From Cytophagales bacterium (GTDB lineage: Bacteria > Bacteroidota > Bacteroidia > Cytophagales > Cyclobacteriaceae), in NCBI GenBank assembly GCA_017303795.1, contig JAFLBR010000007.1, forward strand, positions 186,001-250,000: a DNA stretch of 64,000 nucleotides. Direction: 5' to 3'. Position numbers and translations under genes: made by a program. Shown here piece after piece: positions 22,956 through 27,712 of the stretch (its first letter is position 1; each line of letters begins with the position of its first letter). The notes below the pieces were generated by a model that worked only from the letters and a program-made list of their open reading frames with translations, was not told where the DNA came from and ran no database searches.

Positions 22956-22987
22956 TTTGGAAACTCTACCAAACCACTATACGTTTG
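22956..22987 (+). promoter_or_regulatory. Bacteroidota-type promoter of the methionine operon
   Basis: TTTG (22956-22959) and TACGTTTG (22980-22987) are separated by 20 bp and match the -33/-7 consensus TTTG-N19/20-TAnnTTTG exactly. Transcription should start near 22993, about 27 bases before the riboswitch P1 helix. Confidence 0.75.
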
Positions 22988-23019
22988 TGGCATCATAGTC
23001 GGTGAGGCAATAGCTAAAA

Positions 23020-23146
23020 CCGATTTATAAAGAAGCGTGGAGAGCACAGGCTCTGAGAAACGCTAGCAACCTTCGCCCAAGTAAAATTGGAAAGAAACGG
23101 TGCTAAATCCTGCTCCCGGCAAGGTGCCGAGAGAACTATAAACCGG
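23020..23146 (+). promoter_or_regulatory. SAM-I (S-box) riboswitch aptamer
   Basis: The core matches the S-box layout. P1 pairs CCGATTTATA (23020-23029) with TATAAACCGG (23137-23146), one mismatch. P2 pairs GCGT/ACGC and AGAGC/GCTCT (23041-23054). The conserved GCAACC and GGTGCTAAATCCTGC strands are present. P4 is CGGCA-AGG-TGCCG (23117-23129). The P2 loop CAGG (23047-23050) can pair with CCTG (23109-23112), the known S-box pseudoknot. Downstream genes metY, metX and hom are the expected regulon. No intrinsic terminator follows P1; instead a small ORF starts ten bases later, so the mode of output is unclear. Confidence 0.88.
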
Positions 23147-23155
23147 TAAAGTAAA

Positions 23156-23302
23156 ATGAGAACACAACTTTCCAACCTCAAAAGCCGATCAGGTTATCAA
23201 AGCCTGAAAAACTCAATCCAGGATTTATTTAATCACATTCATTTCGCTCTTGCGCAAATGTGCAATCCTATTCCACAGGGTTGTATGTGTTGTTGCTGTT
23301 GA
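23156..23302 (+). CDS. Cysteine-rich leader peptide between SAM riboswitch and met genes
   Basis: 48-codon frame starting ATG ten bases after the riboswitch P1 helix. The first 35 residues are ordinary and polar; the end is MCNPIPQGCMCCCC, six cysteines in the last 13 residues, four of them consecutive before the TGA stop. A run of codons for one amino acid in a leader ahead of its biosynthetic genes is the mark of a ribosome-stalling attenuator, and metY uses sulfide or cysteine metabolism directly. Not previously known to me in this form. Alternative: a functional small metal- or thiol-binding protein. Coding is supported by position and composition only. Confidence 0.6.
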   Translation: MRTQLSNLKSRSGYQSLKNSIQDLFNHIHFALAQMCNPIPQGCMCCCC

Positions 23303-23339
23303 TTGTTGTCGTTAGTAAGCGAAGCGCTTCCGGCAACAA
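23303..23339 (+). promoter_or_regulatory. Long hairpin directly after the Cys-leader stop, possible attenuator
   Basis: TTGTTGTCG (23303-23311) pairs with CGGCAACAA (23331-23339), one G-U, enclosing a second stem AAGCG/CGCTT. The Cys codons themselves contain TTGTTGCT (23290-23297), which can pair with the same GGCAACAA arm. The two folds exclude each other, and a ribosome on the Cys codons would decide between them. There is no T-run, so it is not a simple terminator. Two further competing hairpins follow at 23354-23381 (CTGCC/GGCAG or GTGAC/GTCAC). Confidence 0.5.
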
Positions 23340-23436
23340 GCTAACCTAAGACCCTGCCAGGTGACAGGCAGTATTGGTCACGGTTATGTTCCATTCCATT
23401 TTTAAAATCAACATTCACAACAAAACATTTTTAACC

Positions 23437-23871
23437 ATGTCTAATCTTAGATTTTCTATAAACTCAAAAAGCGAAACACCCGCACGTACTGAAATTGAAA
23501 CGCGTGGCTTCAAACTCATTGTAGATGAACCTGCCGAATTAGGTGGCACCAATCAGGCACCCAATCCGGTTGAGTACATTCTTGCCGGTTATGCCGGATG
23601 TATTAATGTAGTGGCACACATTACAGCCAAAGAACTGAACATCGATTTGAAAGATCTTCAGATTTCTATTGAAGGTGATTTGAATCCGGCAAGGTTGTTT
23701 GGCACTTCTTTTACGGAACGTGCTGGTTATCAAAATCTGAATGTGTCGCTAAAAACAAAAAGTACTATCGATGAAACGTTAAAAACGAAATGGTTGCAGG
23801 AGATTGAAAACCGGTGCCCGGTAAACGATAACCTTCGCAATGTTACACCCATTAATTTTTCATTGAATTAA
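23437..23871 (+). CDS. OsmC family peroxiredoxin-like protein
   Basis: 144-residue OsmC/Ohr-fold protein. The two conserved cysteines of the family are in GYAGCINVVAH and ENRCPVND, consistent with a thiol-dependent peroxidase or related redox role. ATG 23437 is used; the open frame from 23374 lies in the regulatory leader and lacks similarity. First full gene behind the SAM riboswitch and Cys leader, so it is expected to be induced when SAM (and perhaps cysteine) is low. OsmC proteins are often found with sulfur-assimilation genes in Bacteroidota. Confidence 0.8.
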   Translation: MSNLRFSINSKSETPARTEIETRGFKLIVDEPAELGGTNQAPNPVEYILAGYAGCINVVAHITAKELNIDLKDLQISIEGDLNPARLFGTSFTERAGYQNLNVSLKTKSTIDETLKTKWLQEIENRCPVNDNLRNVTPINFSLN

Positions 23872-23984: not shown

Positions 23985-25319
<1,335 letters not shown>

Positions 25320-26485: not shown

Positions 26486-27712
26486 ATGAAAAAGAAATTA
26501 AAGTTAGGCTTGTTTGGGTTTGGATGTGTAGGGCAGGGTCTTTATCACGTACTGAACGAAACCCATGGAGTAAAAGCAGAGATTAAAAAAATCTGTGTAA
26601 AGAATCGCGACAAGCAACGCATAATTGATGCTACCTATTTTACCTACGAAGCCAACGACATTCTGAACGACCCAGAAATAGATGTGGTAGTTGAATTGAT
26701 TGACGATGCCCACGCTGCGTTTGAAATCGTAAAGAAATCAATCCAAAACGGAAAGCATGTGGTTACCGCCAACAAAAAAATGTTAGCCGAACATCTGGAT
26801 GAAATTTATGAGCTGCAACAAAAGTACGATCGTTCTATTCTGTATGAAGGTGCTGTGTGTGGCAGCATTCCAATTCTTCGCAACCTCGAAGAATATTACG
26901 ACAATGATTTAATCACCAGCATAGAAGGAATCTTTAACGGTTCTACCAATTATATTCTTACCAAAGTATTTGACGAGAAGAAAAGTTATACCGAAGCGTT
27001 GAAAGCCGCACAAGAGCTGGGCTTTGCCGAAACCGATCCCTCGTTAGATGTAAAAGGTTTCGATCCAAAATACAAACTCACCATTGCCATTGCCCACACG
27101 TTCGGTGTTTTTGTAAAACCTGAAAACATCATTAATGTAGGCATTCAAAATATTTCGGCTGTTGATCTGAAATATGCCCGCGAAAACAATCTCACAATTA
27201 AGTTAGTAGCACGTGCCTATAAAATCGATGGCAGCATTATCGGGTTTGTAGCTCCGCAATATATTCCGCTTGATCATACTCTTGCTGCCGTTCGAAATGA
27301 ATTTAATGCAGTTATGGTACAAGGCGCTTTCGCGGAAAAGCAAGTGTTTATTGGTAAAGGTGAGGGTAGTTATCCTACCGGTTCAGCAGTGCTTTCCGAT
27401 ATCTCGGCTTTAACATTCGACTATCGCTACGAATACAAAAAATATACACAAGGTGATGGACTACCTTTCTCCAATGAAGCACTGGTAGATGTGCTGGTTA
27501 GCTTTCCGGAAGGAACTTCAATCTCAAGCAGCGACTTTGAAAATTTTAAAGGCGGCTATCAGGGTAAAGGGCACCAATACCTGCAAGGCACGGTGCGTTT
27601 AGAGAAACTTCAGGAGTGGGCCGATCGGGATGATGTGAGTGTAATTCTGGCACCACAACCTAACCTTGCAGCAGCCCGACAACCGGTTGCTGTTGAGCGC
27701 CTGTCGGCCTGA
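26486..27712 (+). CDS. hom: Homoserine dehydrogenase
   Basis: 408 residues. NAD(P)-binding LGLFGFGCVGQGLY, catalytic region NGSTNYILTKVF and the FAETDPSLDVKGFD motif with the catalytic lysine nearby (YKL). No C-terminal ACT domain in its usual form is recognised, so feedback control by threonine may be absent; the tail from about 340 does not look like an ACT repeat. Abuts metX directly, last gene of the SAM-controlled operon, and a second hom (fused to aspartokinase) would be expected elsewhere in the genome. Confidence 0.88.
   Translation: MKKKLKLGLFGFGCVGQGLYHVLNETHGVKAEIKKICVKNRDKQRIIDATYFTYEANDILNDPEIDVVVELIDDAHAAFEIVKKSIQNGKHVVTANKKMLAEHLDEIYELQQKYDRSILYEGAVCGSIPILRNLEEYYDNDLITSIEGIFNGSTNYILTKVFDEKKSYTEALKAAQELGFAETDPSLDVKGFDPKYKLTIAIAHTFGVFVKPENIINVGIQNISAVDLKYARENNLTIKLVARAYKIDGSIIGFVAPQYIPLDHTLAAVRNEFNAVMVQGAFAEKQVFIGKGEGSYPTGSAVLSDISALTFDYRYEYKKYTQGDGLPFSNEALVDVLVSFPEGTSISSSDFENFKGGYQGKGHQYLQGTVRLEKLQEWADRDDVSVILAPQPNLAAARQPVAVERLSA

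What the first reader, a model, noticed from the sequence alone, without database searches (positions are those of the whole stretch)
22956..23871. SAM-I riboswitch followed directly by a leader ORF ending in a cysteine run: possible dual SAM and cysteine control of the met operon
Seen: consensus promoter, S-box aptamer with P1, P4 and the P2-loop/J3-4 pseudoknot complement, then ten bases later a 48-codon frame ending GCMCCCC, before osmC-metY-metX-hom. S-box riboswitches normally end in a terminator or a sequestered ribosome site, neither of which is visible. Known: Cys-rich leader peptides regulate sulfur genes in mycobacteria. Inference: the riboswitch gates translation of the leader, and stalling on Cys codons sets expression of the genes behind it.
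Basis: partly seen in the sequence, partly recalled or inferred. Interest (0 to 1): 0.85.

Follow-up and report, generated by a model that had tools for sequence, protein, structure and literature searches.

The report
Riboswitch-gated cysteine/methionine leader peptide
In many Bacteroidota the RNA sensor for S-adenosylmethionine is followed at a nearly fixed distance by a tiny gene whose end is packed with cysteine (and methionine) codons, so one mRNA leader appears to read SAM and sulfur amino-acid supply together before the methionine genes are made.

Summary
A SAM-I aptamer (66 bits) is followed 11 nt later by a 48-codon ORF ending GCMCCCC, before osmC-metY-metX-hom. In 58 genomes of the genus, 64 of 131 SAM-I aptamers (51 genomes) have an ATG 1-13 nt behind them and a 23-50 aa ORF with a Cys-rich end; bodies differ, the Cys end recurs. 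Without choosing frames, (TGY)3 runs lie in frame with the first ATG at 50 of 52 genus loci and 28 of 31 others; 0 of 65 other-type aptamers have a run. The pair also occurs in Pontibacter, Hymenobacter, Chryseolinea, Pedobacter and Psychroflexus. New here: leader ends are also about 7-fold enriched in Met; aptamer-to-ATG spacing is narrow; and in this genus a covarying hairpin with an invariant GUGAC loop follows (38 of 38 matches lie behind such an aptamer). Best reading: SAM gates leader translation, and stalling at Cys/Met codons sets downstream expression. Gating, stalling, sign and output step are inferred. Counter-evidence: 37 of 117 loci from named records lack the Cys end, and the window has no U-tailed terminator behind the leader. 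The listings I saw show no paper on the combination.

The parts
22956..22987 (+). Promoter: TTTG (22956-22959), 20 nt, TACGTTTG (22980-22987)
   Evidence: Letters; TAnnTTTG element quoted in a PMC9723704 passage; TTTG box recalled
23022..23144 (+). SAM-I aptamer; 3' strand of P1 (TATAAACC) at 23137-23144
   Evidence: RF00162 66.1 bits; G000:C22:209022-209144
23145..23155 (+). 11-nt spacer GGTAAAGTAAA before the leader ATG, A at -3
   Evidence: Spacing 9-11 nt in 43 of 64 genus leaders; composition; letters
23156..23302 (+). Leader ORF, 48 aa, ATG to TGA
   Evidence: conservation; frame test
23282..23299 (+). Regulatory codons Cys-Met-Cys-Cys-Cys-Cys (TGT ATG TGT TGT TGC TGT), stop TGA at 23300-23302
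   Evidence: tail composition
23328..23341 (+). Anti-Cys segment TTCCGGCAACAAGC, complementary to Cys codons (23290-23296 with 23333-23339) and to the post-stop TTGTTGTCG (23303-23311 with 23331-23339)
23342..23386 (+). Covarying hairpin P_c with invariant GUGAC loop (23361-23365)
   Evidence: model R2 hit G000:C22:209328-209389; covariation; letters
23437..23871 (+). osmC-like gene
   Evidence: PF02566 62.7 bits; NF041052 below its cut-off
23997..25319 (+). metY, O-acetylhomoserine sulfhydrylase
   Evidence: TIGR01326 666.8 bits
25421..26485 (+). metX, homoserine O-acetyltransferase
   Evidence: NF001209 340 bits, cut-off 331
26486..27712 (+). hom, homoserine dehydrogenase
   Evidence: NF004976 327.6 bits, cut-off 205

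Best explanation
A two-input leader RNA. (1) SAM gate: no terminator was found between aptamer and ORF in the window, and the leader's initiation region (about -12 to -19) is the 3' strand of P1, so SAM-bound P1 should block initiation on the leader (inferred). (2) Amino-acid gate: when SAM is low the leader is translated, and the ribosome meets Cys (and Met) codons just before the stop; short Cys- or Met-tRNA stalls it there (inferred from codon content). (3) Output: in this genus the stalled ribosome would keep the Cys codons from pairing with the anti-Cys segment next to hairpin P_c, and that decides whether transcription goes on into osmC-metY-metX-hom (inferred; intrinsic or Rho-dependent termination not resolved). 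Expected logic: ON when SAM is low and Cys/Met-tRNA is low, that is a NOR gate; the sign of the amino-acid input is the least certain. Shown: conserved arrangement, frame, narrow spacing, codon enrichment, hairpin covariation. Step probabilities, my judgement: translated sulfur-amino-acid leader 0.85; SAM gates its start 0.7; low Cys turns expression on 0.6; output by transcription termination 0.55.
For: 64 of 131 genus aptamers have the Cys-ended ORF; all 64 are among the 66 class-A aptamers, and 0 of the other 65 have a (TGY)3 run in the next 210 nt. Frame test without choice of frame: frame 0 at 50 of 52 and 28 of 31. Clustered leaders (172): Met 204/2408 in the last 14 codons against 50/4308 in the body, other frames 13 and 32 of 2408; Cys 716/2408 against 74/4308. 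ATG 9-13 nt behind ATAAA of P1 in 52 of 64 genus, 57 of 74 named and 26 of 28 order/class Cys leaders. Passages of PMC6847099 name A at -3 as a positive determinant, positions -3, -6, -12, -13, and inhibition by structure near the start. Hairpin P_c: 90.8% of 468 cells paired, 50 cells changed on both sides, 0 of 500 shuffles as high; 38 of 38 matches in 56 genomes lie behind a SAM-I aptamer. In the genus, metH-type and terminator-type aptamers lack the leader (53 and 12). L004, L083 and L099 have G+C hairpins with T-runs between leader and gene.
Against: No expression data. 37 of 117 loci from named records and 15 of 35 family-level loci with an ORF lack the Cys end. Terminator-like sites in only 26 of 125 Cys-leader loci (29 of 625 shuffles), none behind the leader in the window. 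Pairing of the Cys run with downstream RNA exceeds an ORF-body control only in the genus (z -0.90 against +0.25); elsewhere not (-0.58 against -0.50). Pairing with the anti-Cys segment is not species specific (own better in 23 of 36). A is the commonest base at most positions before the ATG, so the -3/-6/-12/-13 match is not specific. In 17 close pairs codon positions show no protein-like constraint (101/93/119), and 19 of 26 changes at Cys codons lose Cys.
Confidence: 0.62

Rival explanations
1. SAM gate with Rho: the leader ORF only has to be translated to shield the RNA; without translation (SAM bound) Rho stops transcription. Cys/Met codons tune how long ribosomes stay, and P_c is a Rho or pause element. 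Overlaps in part with the best explanation, so the two odds are not exclusive.
For: No U-tailed terminator behind the leader in the window; intrinsic sites in only 26 of 125 loci; some related leaders keep the ATG but have no Cys; riboswitch, uORF and Rho are discussed together for B12 riboswitches in passages of PMC11260477.
Against: Does not by itself require Cys or Met codons at the end, in frame.
Confidence: 0.45
2. Opposite sign: stalling at Cys codons turns the operon off, so that scarce sulfide is kept for cysteine rather than spent by MetY on homocysteine.
For: Cys ends are common before metY, which consumes sulfide (90 of 130 MetY-first loci); the structural data do not fix the sign.
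Against: One Cys leader precedes cysH and four precede a ferredoxin gene; genes that raise sulfide should go up when Cys is low. Mycobacterial polycysteine ORFs are called cysteine-responsive attenuators (title of Canestrari 2020, seen only as a reference in PMC9094748).
Confidence: 0.2
3. The Cys-rich product is itself a small functional protein (metal or redox binding), made under SAM control.
For: Runs of up to 8 Cys (L193, L292); ORFs of 23-50 aa in the genus.
Against: Bodies differ, number and spacing of Cys vary, Cys sits right at the stop; no Pfam or NCBIfam match for the window's leader, the only one searched; no protein-like codon constraint.
Confidence: 0.07
4. RNA-only element: TGTTGTTGC repeats are there to pair with CAACAACA, and the Cys reading is a by-product.
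For: Best partner of the anti-Cys segment begins in the coding part in 29 of 36 genus loci.
Against: Frame 0 relative to the first ATG at 50 of 52 and 28 of 31 loci; Met enrichment in frame only; no extra pairing outside the genus.
Confidence: 0.06

Closest known systems
SAM-I (S-box) riboswitch, RF00162
   Same: Aptamer matches the family above its gathering score and stands before methionine genes; in SAM-I riboswitches that sequester the ribosome site, it is in the 3' side of P1 (PMC2258182 passage).
   Different: The sequence that could be gated is a leader ORF, not the gene; no own terminator found.
Polycysteine leader ORFs of mycobacteria (Canestrari et al. 2020)
   Same: Cys-rich short ORFs called cysteine-responsive attenuators (title as reference, and passages on such sORFs, in PMC9094748; the paper itself is not held).
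   Different: Those are leaderless by their title; here the ORF lies behind a riboswitch, and Met codons are enriched too.
uORFC-8-2 motif upstream of cysS in Rhodobacterales (PMC8632094, passage)
   Same: uORF with tandem Cys codons in a predicted attenuator.
   Different: No riboswitch mentioned in the passage; two tandem Cys codons; consensus with a U run.
B12 riboswitches with uORFs in M. tuberculosis (PMC11260477, passages)
   Same: Riboswitch and translated uORF act together on the downstream gene.
   Different: In the passages seen the uORF does not read the pathway's amino acids; other ligand and phylum.
SAM-I riboswitch of Xanthomonas that also binds uncharged initiator tRNA (PMC7270179, abstract)
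   Same: Second amino-acid-related input on a SAM-I leader.
   Different: tRNA binds the expression platform; no leader peptide in the abstract.
SAM-I / T box(Met) and SAM-I / AdoCbl tandem logic gates (PMC9481103, passages)
   Same: Two inputs, one 5' leader.
   Different: Second sensor there is RNA; 'leader peptide' and 'uORF' do not occur in the main text of that review.

Membership tests
SAM-I riboswitch (RF00162) | Covariance-model match above gathering score | tested here: met
   66.1 against 44.4 bits
SAM-I riboswitch (RF00162) | Binds SAM | not testable with these tools
   needs in-line probing or calorimetry
SAM-I riboswitch (RF00162) | Expression platform: terminator, or initiation region in P1 | tested here: inconclusive
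   No U-tailed terminator behind aptamer or leader; narrow spacing with the initiation region reaching into P1 fits the second, for the leader ORF
Cys-responsive leader-peptide attenuator | Short ORF with Cys run near its stop before sulfur genes | tested here: met
Cys-responsive leader-peptide attenuator | Cys run in the reading frame of the start codon, conserved | tested here: met
   50 of 52 and 28 of 31 loci that have a run
Cys-responsive leader-peptide attenuator | Expression responds to cysteine through the Cys codons | not testable with these tools
   no expression data
Mycobacterial polycysteine leaderless ORF | ORF begins at the 5' end of the mRNA | tested here: not met
   Aptamer lies between promoter and ORF; 168 nt from promoter box to ATG; transcript start itself not mapped
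trp/his-type transcription attenuator | U-tailed terminator competing with an antiterminator | tested here: not met
   None behind the leader in the window; a hairpin with T-run in 26 of 125 Cys-leader loci
Tandem riboswitch logic gate | Second aptamer in the same leader | tested here: not met
   Only SAM in Rfam at gathering; at E up to 5 in 23140-23480 only one weak miRNA-family match on the other strand

The most novel reading that the evidence does not exclude
A class-wide family of two-input leader RNAs in Bacteroidia: a SAM riboswitch subtype whose output is the translation of a leader peptide that reads cysteine and methionine supply (NOR logic of SAM and Cys-/Met-tRNA), with a lineage-specific hairpin carrying an invariant GUGAC loop as its output element.
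Probability: 0.58. Interest if true: 0.85.

Novelty: new variant of a known kind. Interest (0 to 1): 0.78.

Why it matters
Riboswitches and leader-peptide attenuators are usually treated as separate devices. A widespread, testable case in which a riboswitch gates a codon-reading leader would show how one mRNA leader combines a metabolite with the charging state of tRNA, in a phylum whose mRNAs lack Shine-Dalgarno sequences (PMC6847099 abstract). It would also explain SAM-I aptamers in Bacteroidota that seem to lack an expression platform, and give a role to many small ORFs.

Tried and rejected
Orientation error: read '-' strand loci among L001-L033 unreversed (loci of the genome search are not turned); corrected, whose counts are used.

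Pairing of the Cys run with the start region of the next gene (17-nt arms, 82% complementary, in the window): not a general feature, z +0.38 against +0.28 for the control over 111 loci. Intrinsic termination as the general output: only 26 of 125. Known Rfam element behind the leader: none relevant. Family match for the window's leader peptide: none. RNAalifold on the whole post-leader alignment gave only 7 pairs; the hairpin was tested on a shorter alignment with a structure I named, and it was first seen in these same sequences, so control (b) of that call is not independent. Degenerate-pattern trials: at best 27 of 64 known loci.

Rows left out: of 29 loci only the 10 with a TATAAA-type P1 by eye went on. 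3 genus loci with a GTGAC motif only by chance look (L026, L075) or with a cut end (L116) were not put in alignment A1 (39 listed, 36 aligned). 18 of 83 family/order/phylum loci have no ORF of 12-80 aa starting within 22 nt and are not in the family counts. The genus search used stricter filters that lose weak matches.

Not tested: Cys leaders before sulfur genes without a SAM-I aptamer; phyla other than Bacteroidota.

Full report
What is there. The window carries a SAM-I aptamer at 23022-23144 (RF00162, 66.1 bits) behind a Bacteroidota-type promoter (TTTG-N20-TACGTTTG). Eleven bases behind it a 48-codon ORF runs from 23156 to 23302 and ends GCMCCCC. Behind that come an OsmC-like gene, metY, metX and hom. 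The leader peptide matches no NCBIfam or Pfam model, and Rfam shows no other family over its cut-off in the window.

Genus. All 131 SAM-I hits that one search lists in 58 genomes of the genus were read (the search used stricter filters that lose weak matches). 64 of 131, in 51 of 58 genomes, have an ATG 1-13 nt behind the aptamer opening an ORF of 23-50 aa with at least two Cys in its last 14 residues; 62 of the 64 have at least three. Shuffles of the same stretch behind the same ATG reach three in 40 of 12800. Cys makes up 346 of 896 of the last 14 codons in frame, 68 and 30 of 896 in the other frames. All 64 belong to a sequence subtype of the aptamer (class A: GATTTATAAAGA...TATAAAYY; alignment), which has 66 members in the genus; the other two are L079, with a broken ORF, and L094, masked by N. 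The 65 aptamers that are not class A split cleanly: 53 stand before a gene like MetH (the reference, from L003, is the N-terminal methionine synthase module) and 12 have a T-run of five or more within 95 nt and stand before a MetZ-like gene; 0 of 65 have a (TGY)3 run in the next 210 nt, against 52 of 66 in class A. The window's own genome has a second class-A locus, L004, with leader ...RYCCCS before a RimK-like ATP-grasp gene.

Frame test without choosing frames. Taking simply the first ATG behind each class-A aptamer, (TGY)3 runs fall in its frame at 50 of 52 genus loci that have a run (66 aptamers; 14 without a run) and at 28 of 31 loci from the family, order and phylum searches (77 aptamers, L162 also being a genus locus; 9 without ATG in 24 nt, 37 without run). 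Of the 65 genus aptamers that are not class A, 60 have no ATG within 24 nt.

Breadth. A model of class-A aptamers (R1) was run over 60 genomes of the family, 118 of the order and 247 of the phylum. The loci read are those of the best matches plus 10 of the 29 loci, 83 in all, so they are biased to class A. Among the 65 of them with an ORF of 12-80 aa starting within 22 nt, Cys ends (three or more in the last 14) were found in f1 20 of 35, f21 2 of 2, f2 1 of 1, f14 3 of 3, f4 3 of 3, f18 1 of 1, f12 1 of 1, f15 2 of 6, and, in families of the same class but other orders, f22 5 of 6 and f26 1 of 2; none in f11 (0 of 3), f17 (0 of 1) or f25 (0 of 1). No Cys end was seen at the loci read from families outside the class. 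Runs reach eight Cys codons (L193). Thirteen of the 117 are the same DNA as loci of the genus; without them it is 67 of 104. Cys ends occur in Pontibacter, Rufibacter, Hymenobacter, Cesiribacter, Chryseolinea, Chryseosolibacter, Echinicola, Pedobacter, Sphingobacterium and a Psychroflexus MAG; loci without them include Algoriphagus lacus, Membranihabitans, a Fluviicola MAG and Bacteroidales MAGs (titles were shown for 80 of the 120).

Methionine as well. After collapsing similar peptides (213 distinct, 172 left), Met is 204 of 2408 in the last 14 residues against 50 of 4308 in the body (Fisher p 1.6e-49; residues of related peptides are not independent), and 13 and 32 of 2408 in the other frames. 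Among the 47 without a Cys end it is 45 of 658 against 7 of 1166. Cys is 716 of 2408 against 74 of 4308, but where several frames were open the one with most Cys was taken, so for Cys the frame test above is the fair one. Four leaders end H-T/K-V-H-M-A/S-M-x-x-P-G-C (L236, L245, L264, L352).

SAM gate. The ATG lies 9-13 nt behind ATAAA of P1 in 52 of 64 genus, 57 of 74 named and 26 of 28 order/class Cys leaders that could be measured; the smaller values include loci where an earlier in-frame ATG was taken. In the genus A is the commonest base at -1 to -3, -5 to -8, -12 to -16 and -18 to -20, so the region is A-rich throughout, and -12 and beyond is P1. Passages of PMC6847099 name A at -3, and -3, -6, -12 and -13, and low structure, as what tunes initiation in F. 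johnsoniae. [quoted passage not shown] That SAM-bound P1 blocks the leader start is an inference, not a result.

Behind the leader in this genus. A segment like CAGCAACAAAC is complementary to the Cys codons or the bases just behind the stop (best partner begins in the coding part in 29 of 36). It is followed by a hairpin with an invariant GUGAC loop. On 36 sequences 90.8% of 468 cells pair, 8 of 13 pairs have changes on both sides, 50 cells have such changes, 0 of 500 shuffles are as high on these measures (44 of 500 for the number of further pair types), and slid versions pair at most 42.1%. A model of it (R2) has 38 matches at E up to 0.05 in 56 genus genomes, one each in 38 genomes, all 38 behind a SAM-I aptamer on the same strand at 128-328 nt, 37 with a scored Cys leader and the other the masked L094. 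In the family it occurs in 3 of 60 genomes, two of them of the genus itself; 5 of 81 clustered named loci and 0 of 45 order/class loci have the GTGAC motif. So the hairpin is lineage specific; the riboswitch-leader pair is the general part.

Output step. L004, L083 and L099 have a strong hairpin with a T-run before their gene; over all, 26 of 125 clustered Cys-leader loci have such a site against 29 of 625 shuffles. The window has none behind the leader. Pairing with the next start region is not supported. Transcription termination, intrinsic in some and otherwise possibly Rho-dependent, is the likeliest output but unresolved.

Genes. Over 200 loci (83 from the family, order and phylum searches, 117 named, sets that overlap each other and hold 14 genus loci), the Cys end goes with MetY first in 90 of 130, OsmC 6 of 6, ferredoxin 4 of 4, cysH 1 of 1, ATP-grasp 4 of 5, YceI 1 of 1, SusC-like 1 of 1, no reference gene 4 of 12, but MetX 5 of 19, MetZ 3 of 17, MetH 0 of 3 and Hom 0 of 1 (family names). 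The device tends to sit where sulfide is made or fixed, with MetZ as an exception.

Against. No expression data exist here. In 17 independent close pairs the ORFs show no protein-like constraint (101/93/119 changes by codon position; 56 synonymous and 166 other codon changes) and 19 of 26 changes at Cys codons lose Cys; what is kept is the Cys end as a whole. Extra pairing of the Cys run over an ORF-body control is seen only in the genus. Many relatives keep aptamer and ATG without Cys.

Literature. Searches (open PMC library, no preprints; only the listed top 3-20 titles and abstract starts were seen where there were hits) show no paper on a SAM-I riboswitch followed by a Cys leader. I read passages of seven papers (PMC8632094, PMC2258182, PMC11260477, PMC9723704, PMC6847099, PMC9094748, PMC9481103) and the abstract of PMC7270179. 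One flavobacterial transcriptome paper reports clues for leader-peptide attenuation before amino-acid operons (PMC9723704, passage); its supplement was not read, so it could hold a case of this.

Changed on checking: wording of the promoter distance, counts of non-class-A aptamers, overlap of the named set with the genus, and the A-rich start region.

Noticed in passing
L021, L028, L057, L069, L087, L090 (aptamers): Class-A SAM-I aptamers that lack the P4 stem (CCTG runs straight into AAATATAAACC); all six have Cys leaders (L090 by pattern only).
   Followed up: partly
L236, L245, L264, L352: Leaders of Bacteroidales/Lentimicrobium MAGs (title of L352 not shown) share an ending H-[TK]-V-H-M-[AS]-M-x-x-P-G-C, with Met and Cys but no Cys run; at L236 the next gene is MetH-like.
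   Followed up: no
L004, L083, L099: G+C hairpin with a conserved CUUCAGCGAAGU core and a T-run before a RimK-like ATP-grasp gene of unknown substrate, under SAM-I/Cys-leader arrangement.
   Followed up: partly
L216: A seven-Cys leader behind a SAM-I aptamer before cysH (phosphoadenylyl-sulfate reductase).
   Followed up: yes
window 23288-23304 and 23406-23422: 17-nt arms, 82% complementary, joining the Cys codons to the osmC start region; not a general feature over 111 loci.
   Followed up: yes
window 23359 and 23366 (A3 columns 35 and 42): The two bases near the GUGAC loop covary as A-A or G-G (31 of 36), a non-standard pair.
   Followed up: no
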